The notes under the pieces: model-generated | Told to the model about the DNA's origin: nothing | Database searches by the model: none | The model's input: only the letters and a program-made list of their open reading frames with translations | Shown here: positions 1-5,833 of the stretch, piece by piece | How positions within the stretch are numbered: the stretch's first letter is position 1 | Layout: the number at the start of each line of letters is the position of its first letter | Source: Schaalia odontolytica | GTDB lineage: Bacteria > Actinomycetota > Actinomycetes > Actinomycetales > Actinomycetaceae | DNA length: 8,151 bases | Assembly: GCA_958415245.1 (NCBI GenBank) | Contig: CATYYP010000071.1 | Location: forward strand, 1-8,151 | Direction: 5' to 3' | Program-made: the position numbers and the translations under genes

Positions 1-149
1 TTCTGGAACTTGTCCTTCAGATCGGAGACGACCTCGGTCGCCTTGTCCTTGGCAGCCTCGACGGCCTTCTCGACGTTCTCCTCGCCGAAGGTTTCCTTAG
101 CCTTCTCGAGACCCTCTTCAGCCTGCTTCTTCAGATCTTCCAGACCCAT
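1..149 (-). CDS. Short charged helical protein, 3' part outside window
   Basis: The minus-strand ATG at 149-147 opens a frame that stays open for 49 codons to the window edge, so the C-terminus is missing. The start is well fixed: AAGGAGG sits a few bases upstream, the strongest ribosome binding site in the window. The visible protein begins MGLEDLKKQAEEGLEKAKE and is almost entirely Lys, Glu, Asp, Ala and Val. There is no Pro, Cys or Trp and no membrane segment, so long amphipathic helices are expected. Codons are strongly biased (AAG, GAG, GTC), which with the RBS suggests high expression. The composition resembles the Rv0909/MT0933-type 'antitoxin' family and LEA/CsbD-like stress proteins, but I see no diagnostic motif, so function is unassigned. 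It lies 144 bases after the cupin gene in the same direction and may have its own promoter. Confidence 0.75.
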   Translation of the reverse strand, partial: MGLEDLKKQAEEGLEKAKETFGEENVEKAVEAAKDKATEVVSDLKDKFQ

Positions 150-293
150 GTTTCCTCCTTGGAACGAGCCGCCCGTATTGGTCGAGCGGATGGTCTCACC
201 CTATGCCCGAACCTGGGTGCTCGCGCGTTCAAGGCTTCCCGTGGCGCGATCGTTCCCTGCGCGTCCGCGCCGTGGGACATTGTGCCATCGCGA
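150..293 (-). other. Intergenic stretch upstream of the helical protein gene
   Basis: These 144 bases separate the cupin stop from the small helical gene. On the minus strand there is a weak TAGGGT hexamer, plausible as a -10, about 50 bases before the ATG. A TTGAAC hexamer lies further upstream at a spacing that is too long for a standard -35. A GGCGCG/CGCGCC pair near 243-271 could form a weak hairpin after the cupin stop. None of these is strong. The excellent ribosome binding site at the left end is the only clear signal. Confidence 0.3.
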
Positions 294-743
294 TCAGACG
301 CCTTCGGCGAGCTTCCAGTCGTCGAAGGTGAACTCGGGGGAGACGACGCAGGTCGCCAGCGCATAGTCGCCGCGGGCAAAGGTGCGCTGCCAGGTGCCGG
401 CGGGCACGAGGACCTGCACGGGGTCGCTCGCATCGGAGGCCTGCGTTCCGGCCGGAGAGCCCAGCGTGACGATGCGCGGGTCGGCCTCGGGCGCGTCGCC
501 GCTGCCTCCCAGGTGCACCTCGAGGGCGCCGGGCCCCGACCAGATCCACAGTTCGTCGGAGTGGACGAGGTGCCAGCGGGCCTCCTCGTCGCGGTCGAGG
601 AGGAAGATGATCGCGGAGGCGCTGTGGCGGCTCCCGCGCGGTGTGTCCACCTGCGCGGGCGCGGTCCACGTGCGTCTGTAGTGGCCGCCCTCGGGGTGGG
701 GCGCGAGGCCCATGGCATCAATCAGCGGGGACACGTCGGTCAT
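294..743 (-). CDS. DUF985 / Cupin_5 family protein
   Basis: A 149-residue single-domain protein. The family signature near the N-terminus is clear: LAPHPEGGHYRRTW at residues 13-26. It is followed by SASAIIFLL (41-49), WHLVHSDELWIWSG (57-70) and VLVPAGTWQRTFA (111-123). The C-terminal CVVSPEFTFDDWKLAEG closes the domain. This order is typical of the DUF985/Cupin_5 beta-barrel family (YML079w-like), whose members are usually 140-180 residues and have no settled reaction. Conserved His and Glu residues in the first half could bind a metal or small ligand. The ATG at 743-741 is chosen because GGAG lies about 7 bases upstream and it places the cupin motifs at the usual distance from the N-terminus; the frame is open much further upstream but that part overlaps the amidohydrolase gene. 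It lies 53 bases after the amidohydrolase stop, so co-transcription is likely. Confidence 0.88.
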   Translation of the reverse strand: MTDVSPLIDAMGLAPHPEGGHYRRTWTAPAQVDTPRGSRHSASAIIFLLDRDEEARWHLVHSDELWIWSGPGALEVHLGGSGDAPEADPRIVTLGSPAGTQASDASDPVQVLVPAGTWQRTFARGDYALATCVVSPEFTFDDWKLAEGV

Positions 744-796: not shown

Positions 797-2089
797 TCAG
801 TGCGAGGCCGAGTAGCGCACGCGCCCGGACACGACGGTCTCGACGACGCGACCGGCGCCGTGGCGGGCGACGGTATCGATGGTTTCCACGATCGAGGTGA
901 CGGGCACGTCGATGACGCACATGTCGGCGACCGCGCCCGACTGGAGCTGACCCAGGCGGTCGGGGCCGGTCGCCAGGCCCATCGCCGTGGCGCCGCCCAG
1001 GGTTGCGGCCTGCAGGAGGCGGCGCGCCAGGTCCTGGTCCTCGTAGCCCTGAGCTCGCGCCAGGTCGAAGAGGAGGGCGACGTCCTCGAGCAGGTCGAGG
1101 GATGGGGAGGAGGACAGCGAGTCTGTGCCCACGGCGATCATGTTGCCCTCGGCGAGGTAGGCGCCGACCGGCGGCGCGTCCAGGCCGATCACACGGTTCG
1201 AGCGCGGGCACAGCGCCACTGCCGTCTGGCGGGCGCGCAGTCGCCGGCGGTCGTCGGCGCGCATGTACACGCCGTGGGCGACGTGGCAGTCGGGTCCGAG
1301 GACACCCAGCTGATCGACGAACTGCGTTGAGGAAAAGCCGCCCCCGCGCGAGCGCATCGCCGTGAACGACGAGGAGTGCTCGCTCTTCCACAGGTCCGCC
1401 AGGGCGGTCGTGCGCGTCTCGGACCATTCGGCCTCGGAGTGGGACTCGCCCAGGTGAATGTGGATGCGCATGCCGCGACGCCTGGCCATGTCCGGCAGGT
1501 CCAGCAGAGGCTCGGCGTCGAGTGAGTAGGGAGCGTGCGGGGAGATGCCCACGGCCGGAGGGGTCGGCATGGCGTCGAGGGATGCGGAGACCTCGCGTTC
1601 GCCTCGGGCCCGCCACTCGTCGTTCGACCAGCTCATGACCTCCCAGTAGGCGACGCCGTGCAGTCCGGCATCGTGCAGGGCCGAGGCTGCGGCGGCGTCC
1701 GTCACCACGTCGGCGGCGGCGGTCGTGCCGCTTTCCAGGAGCAGCCGGGCGCCGGCGGCCGCGTCGCCTCCCCAGTCCAGGCCGCCCGCGTCGTAGACCT
1801 CGTCGAAGGCACGCGCCCAGTCGTCGAAACCTCGGTACTGCCCGGCACCCACGGACGCCATGCCCGTGTACTGCAGGTGCGTGTGCGCATTGACGAGGCC
1901 GGGGAGCAGCACGCCGTCAAAGTGGCGTTCGGTGAAGGAAAGGCCGCGCTGCGTGAGCGTTTCGACGACCCAGTCGCGCGCTCCCACGTGCTCGATGCGC
2001 CCGTCGCGCACGGCAACAGCGCCGTCGAGGATCGAGGGGGCGGTGATCGGGATGACCATGCCGGCGGACCAGACGACCACGTCGCTCAT
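797..2089 (-). CDS. Amidohydrolase, SAH/MTA deaminase-like (chlorohydrolase/ATZ-TRZ class)
   Basis: A 430-residue metal-dependent hydrolase of the amidohydrolase superfamily, normal in length. Expected ligands are present in order: NAHTHLQY (H69, H71), SPHAPYS (H185), IHLGES (H212, E215), VAHGVY (H272) and GTDSLSSSPS (D323). The last fits the 'GTDS-x-S' form shared by 5-methylthioadenosine/SAH deaminases and aminofutalosine deaminases. From memory, the 27-residue spacing from H185 to H212 and the 51-residue spacing from H272 to D323 match the Thermotoga MTA/SAH deaminase, with about 30 extra residues between H212 and H272. The inferred reaction is deamination of an adenine nucleoside thioether to the inosyl form, in the cytoplasm. 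The neighbouring AhcY-like gene, 83 bases upstream, supports a SAH-type substrate. Other deaminases (aminofutalosine, 5'-deoxyadenosine, guanine) cannot be excluded. Start ATG at 2089 has GAAAGG upstream. Confidence 0.88.
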   Translation of the reverse strand: MSDVVVWSAGMVIPITAPSILDGAVAVRDGRIEHVGARDWVVETLTQRGLSFTERHFDGVLLPGLVNAHTHLQYTGMASVGAGQYRGFDDWARAFDEVYDAGGLDWGGDAAAGARLLLESGTTAAADVVTDAAAASALHDAGLHGVAYWEVMSWSNDEWRARGEREVSASLDAMPTPPAVGISPHAPYSLDAEPLLDLPDMARRRGMRIHIHLGESHSEAEWSETRTTALADLWKSEHSSSFTAMRSRGGGFSSTQFVDQLGVLGPDCHVAHGVYMRADDRRRLRARQTAVALCPRSNRVIGLDAPPVGAYLAEGNMIAVGTDSLSSSPSLDLLEDVALLFDLARAQGYEDQDLARRLLQAATLGGATAMGLATGPDRLGQLQSGAVADMCVIDVPVTSIVETIDTVARHGAGRVVETVVSGRVRYSASH

Positions 2090-2172
2090 GGGGGACCTTT
2101 CAGTGGGGGACGCTGACTAACAGTGTAGAAGTGGGGCGGGCGCACCCGCCTGCCGGTGGACGTGACCTGCGA
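2090..2172 (-). promoter_or_regulatory. Gap with weak hairpin and possible amidohydrolase promoter
   Basis: Reading leftward after the AhcY-like stop, a GC-only stem (2135-2140 with 2145-2150, loop 2141-2144) occurs about 22 bases on. It could slow transcription but lacks a T-run. Next comes TACACT (2127-2122), acceptable as a -10, which would start RNA near 2115. The amidohydrolase ATG follows at 2089, preceded by GAAAGG. No good -35 is visible, so the gene may be read from its own promoter, from the AhcY-like promoter, or both. Confidence 0.3.
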
Positions 2173-3639
2173 CTACGACAGGGACAGGGCGCCCAGCGCT
2201 GCTGCGGCCACCGCGTCGTCGGCCTCGCGCGGCAGGTCGTGCAGGCCGGGGGCCAGCTCGTCTTCGTGGGTGAGGAGCTCGCGCAGGGACGCCAGCTGCA
2301 CGCCGAAGCTCATGTCCATGATCTCGATGGGGTTTCCCTCGCCCGCCGTGTAGTTGATGCCCTCCCCGCGCTCGAGGATGCGCAGCGTCTTGCCGGAGGG
2401 GCTGGTCAGGGTCTGCACGTGGGGATCGCCCGACTCGGCCATGACCCAGGAGGCGGCCACGGCCTCGTCGATGGAGACCTCCCCGTCAACGCCTCCGGCG
2501 ACCGTGACGATCGCACCCTCGGGCGCCGCCTCCAGCGCGCTCAGCGGGATCGTCGCCCGCTCGCCCGTCGCGGAGAGTAACATGCCGGCGCTCGCCGCTG
2601 CCTCCTCTAGCGAGGCCACGCCGAATCCGTCCATCGACGCCTGCAGGGCACGCACGGGGTCCAGCTCCACGACGGTCACGCGTGCGCCGAGCGCCGCGCC
2701 GAAGCGCGCGCAGCCGCGACCCACGTCTCCGTAGCCGATGACGACGACGCTCATCCCCGCCACAGGCGCACCGACGCCGCGCGGGTCGATCAGGTCGAGG
2801 ATCGTCGTCCAGCACGACTGGCCCGTCCCGTAGGCGTTGTCGAACAGCGTCTTCGAACGCGCATCGTTCGAGGCCAGGACCGGAATGCGCAGATCGAAAG
2901 AACGCAGGGGACGCAGCCCCGAGGTGGTCTCCTCTGCCGCGCCGACCAGCGCGTCCAGGACGCCCGGGCAGCGCTGGGTATCGTGTGCCAGGCGGATCAG
3001 GTGGGAGCCGTCATCCAGCAGGAATTCGCTGCGCTGGGCCAAAAACTCGTGCGCGAGCTCCCACTCGCGCTCGCGGGAGGCGCTCGAGTCCGCGAAGACG
3101 GGGATGCCGGCCTCGCGCAGGCGGGCAGCGACATCCTCGCGGGTCTCGGATGCCCAGCCGAAGACGCTCACGCGTGCTCCCGCCTCGGAGAGCATGAGGG
3201 CCAGGGCGGCCGTTTTCGGCTCCAGGACAAGGGAGAGCCCCACGCTTCGGCCCGCCACCAGGGGAGCCAGGGCGCGGGCCGCCGCCTCGGTGACGGGCAT
3301 GTGGGTGCGCGCCCACTCGATGCGTCCCTCGTCGCCGGGGCCCGTGATGGTGCGCCCGTCTGGAGCGATGACGGCGCGGAACACGCCGCCGGGCGCCAGG
3401 ACCGTGATCGTCCCGGGCTTAGGGGCCGCGTCTTCCTCGAGCGCGAAGACGACCGGGGACGAGGCCGGGGTCCCCTCGAGGTCCGACAGCGGGCGCACGT
3501 GGGCGCCGAACGCGCGCAGCAGGGCGGCCAGCGTCGGGTCGTCTGTCGCGAAGGAACGCCCCGCGATGAGCATGTTCGTGGCCCGCGCGTAGGCGCGTAG
3601 CAGCAGCTGGGCGGCGAGGGGATCCAGGGCGCGGTTCAT
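2173..3639 (-). CDS. Divergent adenosylhomocysteinase (AhcY) paralogue
   Basis: A 488-residue protein whose residues about 108-488 align end to end with archaeal/Thermotoga-type S-adenosylhomocysteine hydrolase. Landmarks are EWARTHMPV (109-116), LEPKTA (139-144), LLDDG (207-211), AEETTSG (235-241), SNDARSKTLFDNAYGTGQS (257-275), the NAD motif GYGDVGRG (302-309), SMDGFGV (335-341) and IEIMDMSF (438-445). The redox pair equivalent to human Lys186/Asp190 is kept (K263, D267), as are Asn258 and Asp210. The active-site histidines equivalent to human His55, His301 and His353 appear as V138, G383 and N436. The substrate loop STQDDVAAAL is changed to a SETREDVAARL form. About 107 unrecognised N-terminal residues precede the domain. 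A changed substrate or a non-hydrolase role is therefore likely. It heads the leftward gene group. The ATG has no clear Shine-Dalgarno sequence. Confidence 0.85.
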   Translation of the reverse strand: MNRALDPLAAQLLLRAYARATNMLIAGRSFATDDPTLAALLRAFGAHVRPLSDLEGTPASSPVVFALEEDAAPKPGTITVLAPGGVFRAVIAPDGRTITGPGDEGRIEWARTHMPVTEAAARALAPLVAGRSVGLSLVLEPKTAALALMLSEAGARVSVFGWASETREDVAARLREAGIPVFADSSASREREWELAHEFLAQRSEFLLDDGSHLIRLAHDTQRCPGVLDALVGAAEETTSGLRPLRSFDLRIPVLASNDARSKTLFDNAYGTGQSCWTTILDLIDPRGVGAPVAGMSVVVIGYGDVGRGCARFGAALGARVTVVELDPVRALQASMDGFGVASLEEAAASAGMLLSATGERATIPLSALEAAPEGAIVTVAGGVDGEVSIDEAVAASWVMAESGDPHVQTLTSPSGKTLRILERGEGINYTAGEGNPIEIMDMSFGVQLASLRELLTHEDELAPGLHDLPREADDAVAAAALGALSLS

Positions 3640-3743: not shown

Positions 3744-4469
3744 ATGACACACGACACGACGGGCCTGGTGACCCGAGCACTAACGAAGACATACATGCGC
3801 GGGCACACGCCCGTCCACGCCCTGGCGGGCGTCGACCTGACCCTCCCGCAGGGCACGCAGGTGGCGATCATGGGCCCCTCGGGCTCCGGTAAGACGACGC
3901 TCCTGCACTGCCTGGCGGGCGTCCTGCGCCCCAGCTCCGGATCGATCACGCTCGATGGTGAAGAGATGACGACCATGTCGGAGCGCGTGCTCTCCAACCT
4001 GCGCCTGCGCCGCTTCGGCTTCGTGTTCCAGGATGGCCAGCTCCTGCCCGAGCTGCCCACGGAAGAGAACATCGCGATGCCCCTCATGCTGGCGGGCACG
4101 CCCAAATCGCAGGCCATCTCTCGTGCACGCGAGATCCTCGCAAACCTAGGGCTCGACGGCGCCGGCCCCTACCGCCCCGGCCAGCTGTCGGGAGGACAGG
4201 CCCAGCGCGTCGCGATCGGCCGCGCGCTCGCCACCGATCCCTCGGTGATCTTCGCTGATGAGCCCACGGGTGCCCTCGACCAGGCCACCGGCGGCGAGGT
4301 CATGTCCCTGCTGACGAGCGCCTGCGCCTCCACCGGGGCATCCCTGGTCCTCGTCACCCACGATCCCGCTGTCGCCGCGCGCCTGCCGCACACGATCCAC
4401 GTGCGCGACGGCCGCATCTCCCTCGAGGCACGAGGCAGTGGGACCCCCAGCCAGGGGGTGGCCCGATGA
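3744..4469 (+). CDS. ABC transporter ATP-binding protein, FtsE/LolD/MacB type
   Basis: A 241-residue nucleotide-binding subunit, normal in length for the class. All ATPase motifs are intact: Walker A GPSGSGKTT (44-52), Q-loop FQDGQLLPELP with Q96, signature LSGGQAQRVAIGRAL (148-162), Walker B VIFADEPTGALD with catalytic E173, and the switch histidine H206 in VLVTHD. The form of the Q-loop, followed by TEENIAMPLMLAG, and EPTGALD are typical of the lipoprotein-release/macrolide/bacitracin-peptide exporter class, which works with FtsX-like permeases. It would sit on the cytoplasmic face of the membrane and power the product of the next gene, whose ATG overlaps this stop by four bases (translational coupling). 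No two-component system lies beside it, so the cargo cannot be named. The start is the first ATG, with no clear RBS. Confidence 0.95.
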   Translation: MTHDTTGLVTRALTKTYMRGHTPVHALAGVDLTLPQGTQVAIMGPSGSGKTTLLHCLAGVLRPSSGSITLDGEEMTTMSERVLSNLRLRRFGFVFQDGQLLPELPTEENIAMPLMLAGTPKSQAISRAREILANLGLDGAGPYRPGQLSGGQAQRVAIGRALATDPSVIFADEPTGALDQATGGEVMSLLTSACASTGASLVLVTHDPAVAARLPHTIHVRDGRISLEARGSGTPSQGVAR

Positions 4470-5833
4470 GCGCGGTACGCACCGCCGCCGGGGCGCTCCT
4501 GCGGTCGCGCGACCGCGCGACGAGTGTCCTCACGGTCGCGGCCTTTGCCCTGCCGCACGCGTTCCTGCTCGCGGTCACGGGCGGTGTCATGGCCTTTGGG
4601 GCGAGGGCTACCGTCGCCGCTGCGTCCGCCACGGCCGACGACCCCTCAAGCCTCGACGGGATGGCGTCCTTCTACGTGATGCTTGCGTACTTCGCGGCCA
4701 CCCTGCTCATCGTCCCCATCATCTCGATGGGGGCAGCGGCCGCGCGCCTGGGCATGAGTCGGCGTGAGCGCGACCTCGCGGTCCTGCGCCTCGTCGGCCT
4801 CGCGCCGGGCAAGACGAAGCTCGCCTGCATCCTCGAAACCTGCGTGTTTGCGGTTGTCGGTGTCGTCGTCGGCTCGATCCTGTACGCCGTGACGCTGCCC
4901 GCGTGGGGTGCGCTGTCCTTCCAGGGCCGCCCGATGGGGGCCGGCGAGATGTGGGTGGGGGTTGTGGCCCTCCTTGTCGAGGGGCTCGCCATGATCCTCC
5001 TGGCCGCCCTGTCCTCGTGGCTGGCCATGCGCAAGGTCGCGATCACGCCCCTCGGCGTCGCGCGCCGCACGCAGGCGGGCCGCGTGAGCGCGGTCGGCCC
5101 CGTCCTCGGCCTGGTTCTCCTCGTGGTGTGGCTGAGCGTCGGCACCCTCGCGATGAACCTGGGAACTGCGATCGGCATGGCCGTGTTCTTGGGCTTCATG
5201 GGCGCGATCTTCCTGATCGTCAACCTGGTGGGTGTGTGGTCGATCAGTCTCATGGGCCGCATCATGGCTCGGGCCTCGCGCAGCCCCCAGATGATGGTGG
5301 CCGGGCGTCGCATGGCCGACGACCCGCGCGCTGTGTGGCGCTCCTTCGGGGCGGTTGCCCTCGTCGGGTTCCTCGTGGGCATCATGTATCCCGCGAGTGA
5401 CGCGATCTCGATGAGCGGGGACAAAACCGATGAGGTAGCGCTCATCGTCGTCGGCGACATCAACAGGGGCATGCTGCTCACCTTCGCGATTACCCTCGCC
5501 CTTGGGGCCGTGTCGACCGCGGTCAACCAGTCGATCCGCGTCCTCGACTCCGCCGACCAGGTGCGCGCCCTGTCCTACATGGGGTCGCCGCGCGGCTTCA
5601 TGGACCGCAGCCGTCGCCTCGAGGTCGCGATCCCCGCCTTCGTCATGATCGTTGGCTCGATGCTGCTCGGCATGGTGTTCATGTCGCCGATGCTTGCGGC
5701 GGGTGCGGGAAAGGGGGTCCTCATCGCGCTTGCCTCGGCGCTTGTGGGCGTCATGCTCATCGTCGTTGCCTCCGAGGCGACCGTCCCGCTGCGCCGCCGA
5801 ATCCTGTCGGGTGTGCGCGAGGGGCGCGAGTAG
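4466..5833 (+). CDS. FtsX-like ABC transporter permease
   Basis: A 455-residue integral membrane protein with about ten hydrophobic segments, roughly at residues 22-44, 67-93, 121-143, 160-186, 210-230, 233-258, 292-312, 335-355, 388-410 and 415-437. It reads as two FtsX-like units. The first has RRERDLAVLRLVGLAPGKTK (99-118), the classical coupling-helix region; the second carries an equivalent, QVRALSYMGSPRGFM (365-379). External loops are short, so it lacks the large periplasmic domain of MacB and the large loop of BceB. It therefore resembles compact actinobacterial FtsX-family exporters of unknown cargo. It overlaps the ATPase gene by ATGA and forms a two-gene unit with it; a strong hairpin follows 25 bases after the stop. 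Substrate could be a peptide, lipid or drug; the sequence does not say. Confidence 0.93.
   Translation: MSAVRTAAGALLRSRDRATSVLTVAAFALPHAFLLAVTGGVMAFGARATVAAASATADDPSSLDGMASFYVMLAYFAATLLIVPIISMGAAAARLGMSRRERDLAVLRLVGLAPGKTKLACILETCVFAVVGVVVGSILYAVTLPAWGALSFQGRPMGAGEMWVGVVALLVEGLAMILLAALSSWLAMRKVAITPLGVARRTQAGRVSAVGPVLGLVLLVVWLSVGTLAMNLGTAIGMAVFLGFMGAIFLIVNLVGVWSISLMGRIMARASRSPQMMVAGRRMADDPRAVWRSFGAVALVGFLVGIMYPASDAISMSGDKTDEVALIVVGDINRGMLLTFAITLALGAVSTAVNQSIRVLDSADQVRALSYMGSPRGFMDRSRRLEVAIPAFVMIVGSMLLGMVFMSPMLAAGAGKGVLIALASALVGVMLIVVASEATVPLRRRILSGVREGRE

What the first reader, a model, noticed from the sequence alone, without database searches (positions are those of the whole stretch)
2173..3639. 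AhcY paralogue that keeps the NAD/redox site but lacks three active-site histidines
Seen: the NAD motif GYGDVGRG, Lys263, Asp267, Asn258, Asp210 and the EETTSG segment match canonical S-adenosylhomocysteine hydrolase. The positions of human His55, His301 and His353 read Val138, Gly383 and Asn436. The substrate loop STQDD is altered and DDGxD has become DDGSH. Known: these histidines contact the adenosine/ribose and take part in proton transfer and gating. Inference: the protein still does 3'-oxidation chemistry on a different nucleoside, or binds NAD/nucleoside as a sensor. The frame is long and intact with the fold motifs kept, so it does not look like a decaying pseudogene.
Basis: partly seen in the sequence, partly recalled or inferred. 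Interest (0 to 1): 0.75.

Follow-up and report, generated by a model that had tools for sequence, protein, structure and literature searches.

The report
Histidine-less AhcY in nucleoside-salvage cassette
This gene encodes a member of a conserved branch of the enzyme S-adenosylhomocysteine hydrolase that has lost three active-site histidines; in most relatives examined it lies near a deaminase-family gene and importer genes, and it is predicted to cut the side group off a scavenged nucleoside, likely deaminated S-adenosylhomocysteine, which would be a new variant of a known route.

Summary
The 488-aa protein at 3639..2173(-) has Val138, Gly383 and Asn436 where S-adenosylhomocysteine hydrolases carry three histidines; the residues for NAD-dependent 3'-oxidation are kept. 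It is not decay: none of 239 close homologues has a histidine there, and four other residues (Arg216, Ser240, Asp282, Glu434) are fixed instead. The branch ("AhcY2", my name) is monophyletic.

The neighbours suggest a pathway. A deaminase-type amidohydrolase follows in 48 of 50 loci; 46 of 50 hold one of three unrelated importer types. In 151 genomes of the Schaalia family, AhcY2 and the amidohydrolase occur in the same 11. One plasmid operon adds a nucleoside hydrolase. The hypoxanthine-reading Glu/Lys pair of S-inosylhomocysteine hydrolases is kept.

My reading: import of a 5'-substituted adenosine (likely SAH), deamination, then NAD-dependent cleavage by AhcY2. A sensor is unlikely. Substrate and chemistry are untested; loss of the two water-handling histidines leaves open that it is a lyase.

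A second finding: the N-terminal ~100 residues are likely the last remnant of a tandem partner, AhcY1, intact in Proteobacteria and progressively reduced in Actinomycetota.

The parts
2173..3639 (-). AhcY2: His-less S-adenosylhomocysteine hydrolase paralogue, 488 aa
2173..3336 (-). SAHH core, residues 102-488
   Evidence: structural alignment range 102..488
3340..3639 (-). N-terminal stub, residues 1-100: likely remnant of the cofactor domain of a partner paralogue (AhcY1)
   Evidence: profile match to standalone remnants prob 97.7, E 1.8e-12; those match AhcY1 prob 96.5, E 8.6e-10 and, less well, AhcY2 prob 93.9, E 1.6e-7; direct stub-AhcY1 match only 29%; Foldseek hits not significant, though 36 of the top 50 are SAHH chains
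3226..3228 (-). Val138, place of human His55
3214..3222 (-). Glu140-Pro-Lys142: hypoxanthine-reading Glu/Lys of the HxExK motif, here VxExK
   Evidence: motif from PMC10978960
2836..3012 (-). Stretch from Asp210 to Asn268 holding the 3'-oxidation residues (Asp210, Glu237, Asn258, Lys263, Asp267, Asn268) and clade-specific Arg216 and Ser240
2491..2493 (-). Gly383, place of gate His301
2332..2334 (-). Asn436, place of His353
797..2089 (-). Amidohydrolase (deaminase-type), 430 aa, predicted to deaminate the imported nucleoside
   Evidence: PF01979 120.4 bits; each of six metal/catalytic residues kept in 47 or 48 of 48 relatives; nearest solved relatives include an MTA/SAH deaminase and DR_0824
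294..743 (-). Cupin_5 (DUF985) protein, frequent but not constant cassette gene, role unknown
   Evidence: PF06172 111.5 bits; neighbours

Best explanation
The gene encodes a His-less branch of S-adenosylhomocysteine hydrolase that likely cleaves a deaminated 5'-substituted nucleoside, most likely S-inosyl-L-homocysteine (SIH), predicted to be made by the neighbouring amidohydrolase from a nucleoside, likely SAH, that the cassette's transporter would bring in. Proposed steps (all inferred): (1) a PAAT-type ABC, ECF or CUT1 importer takes up the 5'-substituted adenosine; (2) the amidohydrolase turns the adenine into hypoxanthine; (3) AhcY2 grips the hypoxanthine with Glu140/Lys142, oxidises the 3'-OH with NAD+ and Lys263/Asp267/Asn258, lets Asp210 take the 4' proton, and expels the 5' group (homocysteine); (4) water is added and the ketone reduced to give inosine, in a 5' pocket where Val and Gly stand for the two histidines that hold the water in studied SAHHs; (5) where present, a nucleoside hydrolase splits inosine. 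Shown: the gene, the residues, the clade, the neighbours and their co-occurrence. Inferred: substrate, direction, chemistry. In Actinomycetota the former partner AhcY1 has likely shrunk to a cofactor-domain stub that may survive as a structural subunit.
For: Residues of 3'-oxidation and of hypoxanthine recognition fixed while the three histidines are absent. HxExK marks SIH-preferring enzymes (PMC10978960). Amidohydrolase downstream on the same strand in 48 of 50 loci (misses: L033, and L048 where the contig ends); importer somewhere in the fetched locus, up to about 7 kb away, in 46 of 50: PAAT ABC 27, ECF 15, CUT1 4. Gene fusion AhcY2-amidohydrolase of 1086 aa in Rarobacter L021. The same 11 of 151 genomes hold both genes (Fisher p 6e-17, not corrected for kinship). 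0 of 12 canonical AhcY neighbourhoods hold any of 16 cassette queries. Roseateles plasmid: LacI, then AhcY1-AhcY2-SBP-permease-permease-amidohydrolase-ATPase-nucleoside hydrolase (PF01156); a nucleoside hydrolase also lies upstream of L034 and L035. The PAAT SBP keeps its family's Arg (27 of 27) and Asp (26 of 27), residues that grip alpha-amino acids (role recalled), fitting a ligand with an amino-acid end such as SAH. Housekeeping SAH removal looks covered elsewhere: of 24 genomes 16 have LuxS and 7 of the other 8 a canonical AhcY.
Against: No activity was measured. Canonical chemistry uses His55 as base for the added water (PMC4647836); its loss argues against ordinary hydrolysis. The amidohydrolase does not single out SAH deaminases: profile scores are 133.9 bits for 4gbd/4dyk, 128.7 for atrazine chlorohydrolase, 127.8 for DR_0824, 123.5 for an MTA/SAH deaminase, 96.6 for TM0936, and none of the 25 NCBIfam models shown reaches its cut-off. 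ECF and CUT1 importers do not point to an amino acid. L033 has no amidohydrolase in its 14 kb; L011, L020, L021, L048 show none of the three importers. In Pauljensenia (L013) neither LuxS nor a canonical AhcY was found, so there AhcY2 could serve housekeeping. The Arg/Asp pair of the SBP is general to its family. The 50 loci are not independent (L001-L005 are near-identical Schaalia; several Rathayibacter) and one of the two peptide patterns that found them spans Asn436.
Confidence: 0.5

Rival explanations
1. Same cassette, but the scavenged compound is not SAH: for example 5'-methylthioadenosine, SAM or another 5'-substituted adenosine. AhcY2 would release a different 5' group after deamination.
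For: Three unrelated importer types, among them RibU-like ECF and sugar-type CUT1; altered STQDD loop and 5' pocket; amidohydrolase about equally close to several enzyme types. A sulfonium leaving group as in SAM would need no acid from His301 (inference).
Against: SBP Arg/Asp kept in the commonest importer type, which fits an amino-acid end (SAH or SAM) better than methylthioadenosine.
Confidence: 0.2
2. AhcY2 is a lyase: it oxidises 3', removes the 4' proton, expels the 5' group and reduces 3' without adding water, giving 4',5'-didehydro-5'-deoxyinosine or a derived keto sugar.
For: The two histidines that hold the water at C5' in mouse SAHH are gone in the clade while oxidation and C4' residues stay; a cupin of unknown function accompanies many cassettes.
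Against: No product evidence; the unsaturated product would be labile; Arg216 or ordered water might replace the histidines.
Confidence: 0.17
3. NAD/nucleoside sensor or pseudoenzyme regulating the cassette, like the eukaryotic AHCYL proteins.
For: Loss of three active-site histidines; AHCYL proteins are non-catalytic relatives (recalled; search listing).
Against: The oxidation residues are fixed; LacI regulators are already present in several cassettes; fusion to an enzyme; no closeness to 3mtg and 3gvp (114 and 112 bits against 238 for 5tov; that these two are AHCYL proteins is recalled).
Confidence: 0.08
4. Ordinary SAH hydrolase with unusual but tolerated substitutions.
For: NCBI rule NF004005 is passed (319 against 275 bits); where a source gives a name it is adenosylhomocysteinase.
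Against: TIGR00936 far under its cut-off (273.5 against 497.6); base motif is VxExK, not HxTxE(Q); 13 of 30 host genomes have a canonical AhcY besides and 16 of 24 LuxS.
Confidence: 0.05

Closest known systems
S-inosyl-L-homocysteine hydrolase / euryarchaeal-type SAHH (HxExK; P. furiosus, T. maritima, M. jannaschii)
   Different: His55, gate His298/301 and His350 replaced by Val, Gly, Asn in the clade; new fixed Arg216, Ser240, Asp282, Glu434; importer cassette; N-terminal stub
Canonical adenosylhomocysteinase AhcY (EC 3.13.2.1, number recalled)
   Same: Fold, NAD domain, Asp210/Glu237/Asn258/Lys263/Asp267/Asn268
   Different: None of the three histidines, other base motif, different neighbours, coexists with a canonical AhcY in 13 of 30 genomes
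DadD / MTA-SAH deaminase plus SIHH route (M. jannaschii)
   Same: Would work like it: deaminate first, cleave the hypoxanthine nucleoside next
   Different: Here the genes are linked to importers and, in three loci, a nucleoside hydrolase, which suggests scavenging rather than recycling
AHCYL1/IRBIT and AHCYL2
   Same: SAHH relatives with altered function (recalled)
   Different: Lower similarity; here the oxidation site is fixed and the context metabolic

Membership tests
Adenosylhomocysteinase (AhcY) | SAHH fold with NAD-binding domain | tested here: met
Adenosylhomocysteinase (AhcY) | Lys/Asp/Asn/Asp/Glu of 3'-oxidation and C4' proton transfer | tested here: met
Adenosylhomocysteinase (AhcY) | His55 base and gate His301 | tested here: not met
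   V138, G383; no His in 239 homologues
Adenosylhomocysteinase (AhcY) | HxTxE(Q) adenine motif | tested here: not met
   VxExK
Adenosylhomocysteinase (AhcY) | Curated family cut-offs | tested here: inconclusive
   NF004005 passed 319/275; TIGR00936 failed 273.5/497.6; NF004009 failed 266.6/485
Adenosylhomocysteinase (AhcY) | SAH cleavage activity | not testable with these tools
   needs an assay
S-inosylhomocysteine hydrolase (SIHH) | Glu and Lys of HxExK | tested here: met
   E140, K142
S-inosylhomocysteine hydrolase (SIHH) | His of HxExK | tested here: not met
   V138
S-inosylhomocysteine hydrolase (SIHH) | A deaminase-type amidohydrolase in the same genome | tested here: met
   next gene in the window; 48 of 50 loci
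S-inosylhomocysteine hydrolase (SIHH) | SIH cleavage activity | not testable with these tools
   needs an assay
Amidohydrolase deaminase (neighbour gene) | HxH, H, E, H, D metal and catalytic residues | tested here: met
   each in 47 or 48 of 48
Amidohydrolase deaminase (neighbour gene) | Specificity for SAH | not testable with these tools
   profile comparison does not single it out
AHCYL1/IRBIT-like regulators | Specific similarity to AHCYL proteins | tested here: not met
   3mtg 114.4 and 3gvp 112 bits against 238.5 for 5tov

The most novel reading that the evidence does not exclude
AhcY2 is a new kind of nucleoside enzyme: an NAD-dependent 5'-elimination lyase that carries out only the first half of the SAHH reaction on hypoxanthine nucleosides, the core of a patchily spread scavenging cassette for extracellular SAH-like nucleosides with interchangeable importers; it evolved as one half of a two-paralogue enzyme whose other half, AhcY1, has shrunk in Actinomycetota to a fused cofactor-domain stub.
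Probability: 0.17. Interest if true: 0.88.

Novelty: new variant of a known kind. Interest (0 to 1): 0.7.

Why it matters
Where public sources name these proteins they say adenosylhomocysteinase, so models of methyl recycling in oral Schaalia/Actinomyces, environmental mycobacteria and soil bacteria likely carry a wrong gene. If the reading holds, bacteria possess a dedicated route to scavenge SAH-like nucleosides, and an SAHH-fold enzyme works without the histidines held responsible for the 5' chemistry. The AhcY1 series (whole enzyme, degenerate enzyme, free Rossmann remnant, fused stub) is a testable case of a partner enzyme shrinking to a structural subunit. PMC10978960 left open how SIH is used in Streptomyces, where the tested SAHHs did not cleave it (passage); a His-less branch widens the candidates.

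Tried and rejected
Whole-genome search of the window's own assembly: none is held. Rfam over 8 sources, window included: only two tRNAs at gathering threshold, so no riboswitch found. I had first guessed a thiamin-precursor importer context and dropped it when the importers proved to be PAAT, RibU-like ECF and CUT1. Plasmid origin of the window: no near match among PLSDB plasmids. Chance or decay: rejected. Relocated catalytic histidine: the eight histidines of the query were checked; only His219 is clade-wide and it is present in P. furiosus too. No model coordinates reach the scripts, so pocket geometry was not measured. The stub alone folds with low confidence (pLDDT 69.3); no Foldseek match is significant (best E 0.13, TM about 0.35 for SAHH), though 36 of the 50 rows shown are SAHH chains; it shows nothing alone. 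Surveys: in 249 genomes of the order of G021 two passed E 1e-60, the seed and one whose protein keeps two of the histidines and is not AhcY2; in 299 genomes of the family of G026, 4 passed E 1e-100, all AhcY2, but that cut missed G026's own AhcY2, so 4 is a floor. Phage records: three SAHH matches at 30-36% identity, not followed. Literature (PMC CC library only): the rows listed show no paper on a bacterial His-less AhcY or such a cassette; searches had more hits (128, 153, 65) than rows shown (15, 12, 25), and the original SIHH paper is not held. Papers: PMC10978960 outline, passages and sections 9, 10; PMC4647836 passages; PMC13406329 passages; all others search listings only. Dropped rows: L036 (N-terminus lost), L051b and L064 (neither group) from the count; the tree used 33 AhcY2 rows, a choice from those at hand, plus four rows in no group; P0120 was left out because its N-terminal half was the part aligned; L022 canonical control: 12 of the 13 canonical loci were fetched for (G022's was not). 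The profile was built from 7 rows, two of them P. furiosus and T. maritima SAHH, so it is not purely AhcY1. Gene calls in scripts are ORFs chosen by cross-locus similarity, not curated genes.

Full report
1. What is there. The window is closest to Schaalia among the loci at hand: 95.2% identical over 5.9 kb to Schaalia sp. ORNL0103 and 94.7% over 5.8 kb to S. odontolytica. On the minus strand lie, in order, a 488-aa SAHH relative (3639..2173), an amidohydrolase (2089..797) and a Cupin_5 protein (743..294). In S. odontolytica (L003) a PAAT-type ABC importer (SBP, permease, ATPase) follows about 240 bases beyond the point that matches the window's end. A LolD-type ABC ATPase and an FtsX-like permease are divergently placed (3744-5833).

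2. The observation. Alignment to P. furiosus and T. maritima SAHH gives V138, G383, N436 for the three histidines, DDGSH for DDGxD, and retention of D210, E237, N258, K263, D267, N268. In the clade V138, G383 and N436 are as fixed as the catalytic residues: no histidine at these columns in 239 homologues; 213 of the 222 complete rows are identical at 15 signature positions. Two biases: these homologues are the top 120 of two AhcY2 searches, and one of the two peptide patterns that fetched the 50 loci spans Asn436. Against that, members come from Actinomycetota, Alpha-, Beta- and Gammaproteobacteria and a Chloroflexota MAG (names), and the 13 canonical and 5 full AhcY1 rows beside them keep all three histidines. 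Clade-specific fixed residues include P141, R216, S240, D282, E434. A maximum-likelihood tree of 57 rows puts 33 AhcY2 rows on one side of a branch (96/99), 7 AhcY1 rows (99/98) and 13 canonical rows (100/100); it does not make AhcY1 and AhcY2 sisters (AhcY1 joins the others at 80/48). A Rubrobacter plasmid copy is intermediate: P for H55, G for H301, but H for H353. dN/dS is 0.13-0.20.

4. The cassette. In 50 loci from the GTDB species set an amidohydrolase homologue lies downstream on the same strand in 48; the misses are L033 and L048 (contig end). A PAAT-type SBP is found in 27, an ECF S component in 15, a CUT1 SBP in 4, none in 4 (L011, L020, L021, L048); in L006, L008 and L013 the SBP is more than 5 kb away. 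The loci include near-copies. LacI regulators accompany most CUT1 and many ECF forms. Rarobacter fuses AhcY2 and amidohydrolase. A Roseateles plasmid carries LacI and AhcY1-AhcY2-SBP-permease-permease-amidohydrolase-ATPase-nucleoside hydrolase. Controls: none of 12 canonical AhcY neighbourhoods (6.5-16 kb) from the same genomes matches any of 16 cassette queries at E 1e-8; in 151 genomes of the family of S. odontolytica the same 11 hold AhcY2 and amidohydrolase, and in one of them (G382) both are in pieces. The p-value ignores kinship.

5. Why scavenging rather than recycling. Of 24 host genomes, 16 have LuxS and 7 of the remaining 8 a canonical AhcY; Pauljensenia L013 has neither. All 24 hold PNP_UDP_1 proteins, the family of the nucleosidase that works with LuxS, but that family is too broad to prove it. 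The cassette is patchy and importer-linked.

6. Why a hypoxanthine nucleoside. Koeppl et al. (PMC10978960, sections 9, 10 and passages) report that HxExK enzymes prefer SIH, Lys binding O6 and Glu N1; AhcY2 keeps Glu140 and Lys142. The adjacent amidohydrolase keeps the deaminase metal site. Why SAH in particular: the PAAT SBP keeps the Arg and Asp that hold alpha-amino acids in its family (role recalled). This last link is the weakest, and the amidohydrolase comparison does not single out SAH.

7. Chemistry. In mouse SAHH His55 takes a proton from the added water, Asp131 protonates C4', His301 stabilises, Lys186 serves the 3' redox step (PMC4647836, passages). AhcY2 keeps the counterparts of Asp131 and Lys186 and loses His55 and His301. 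The first half (oxidation, C4' deprotonation, elimination) is therefore possible on paper; the water step needs another device, or does not occur. I hold hydrolysis more likely because an inosine-uridine-type nucleoside hydrolase lies in three of the loci seen (L034, L035 upstream of the LacI gene; L100 at the operon's end).

8. The shrinking partner. Proteobacteria and a Microbacteriaceae MAG carry a full AhcY1 (HxExK, histidines kept) directly upstream of AhcY2 (L033, L034, L035, L041, L043, L100); an Acidimicrobiales protein fuses both and has Gln for His55 in its first half; Rhizohabitans has a degenerate 368-aa AhcY1 (E 3e-59 to the profile); Mycobacterium, Nocardia, Rathayibacter and Cryobacterium have a separate 184-319 aa protein ending at the AhcY2 start whose centre matches the AhcY1 cofactor domain better than that of AhcY2; in Actinomycetaceae and Acidipropionibacterium a related stretch of about 100 aa is fused to the N-terminus. 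The direct match of the stub to AhcY1 is weak (29%; E 0.06), so the last link rests on the intermediate. A structural-subunit role is inference.

9. Verdict. Confirmed observation, partly right interpretation, a new variant of the SIHH kind in a likely scavenging cassette; substrate and reaction untested.

Noticed in passing
L001, L004, L009: Records titled Xylanimonas cellulosilytica 352_XCEL and Sanguibacter keddieii 250_SKED are 93-94% identical to this Schaalia-like window, and Trueperella pyogenes 331_TPYO (L009) has the gene order of Actinomyces L007: the species labels look wrong.
   Followed up: partly
L103, L105 (haloarchaeal plasmids): An AhcY annotated directly after a QueT-like ECF transporter in Natronosalvus and Natrononativus; the Natronosalvus copy has HxExK and all three histidines: an independent link of an AhcY with an importer.
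   Followed up: partly
L101:6989-8254: Rubrobacter plasmid AhcY variant with Pro for His55 and Gly for His301 but His353 kept, next to a HAD hydrolase and a bile acid:sodium symporter family gene: a possible sister of AhcY2 with other partners.
   Followed up: partly
L064 (Rathayibacter, G018) and L082 (G099): Divergent AhcY paralogues with His55 and His301 kept but Asn at the His353 place.
   Followed up: no
G382:C12:88139-90052: AhcY2 match partial and amidohydrolase in two pieces side by side: the cassette seems to decay as a unit in this genome (described only).
   Followed up: no
window 1-149 (-): Start of a small charged ORF (MGLEDLKKQAEEGLEKAKE...) between the cupin and, in relatives, the importer genes; identity not sought.
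   Followed up: no
window 3744-5833 (+): Divergent LolD-like ABC ATPase and FtsX-like permease, at the same place in L001-L005.
   Followed up: no
window 2090-2172: Short G+C-rich inverted repeat between AhcY2 and the amidohydrolase gene, seen by eye; no T run follows.
   Followed up: no
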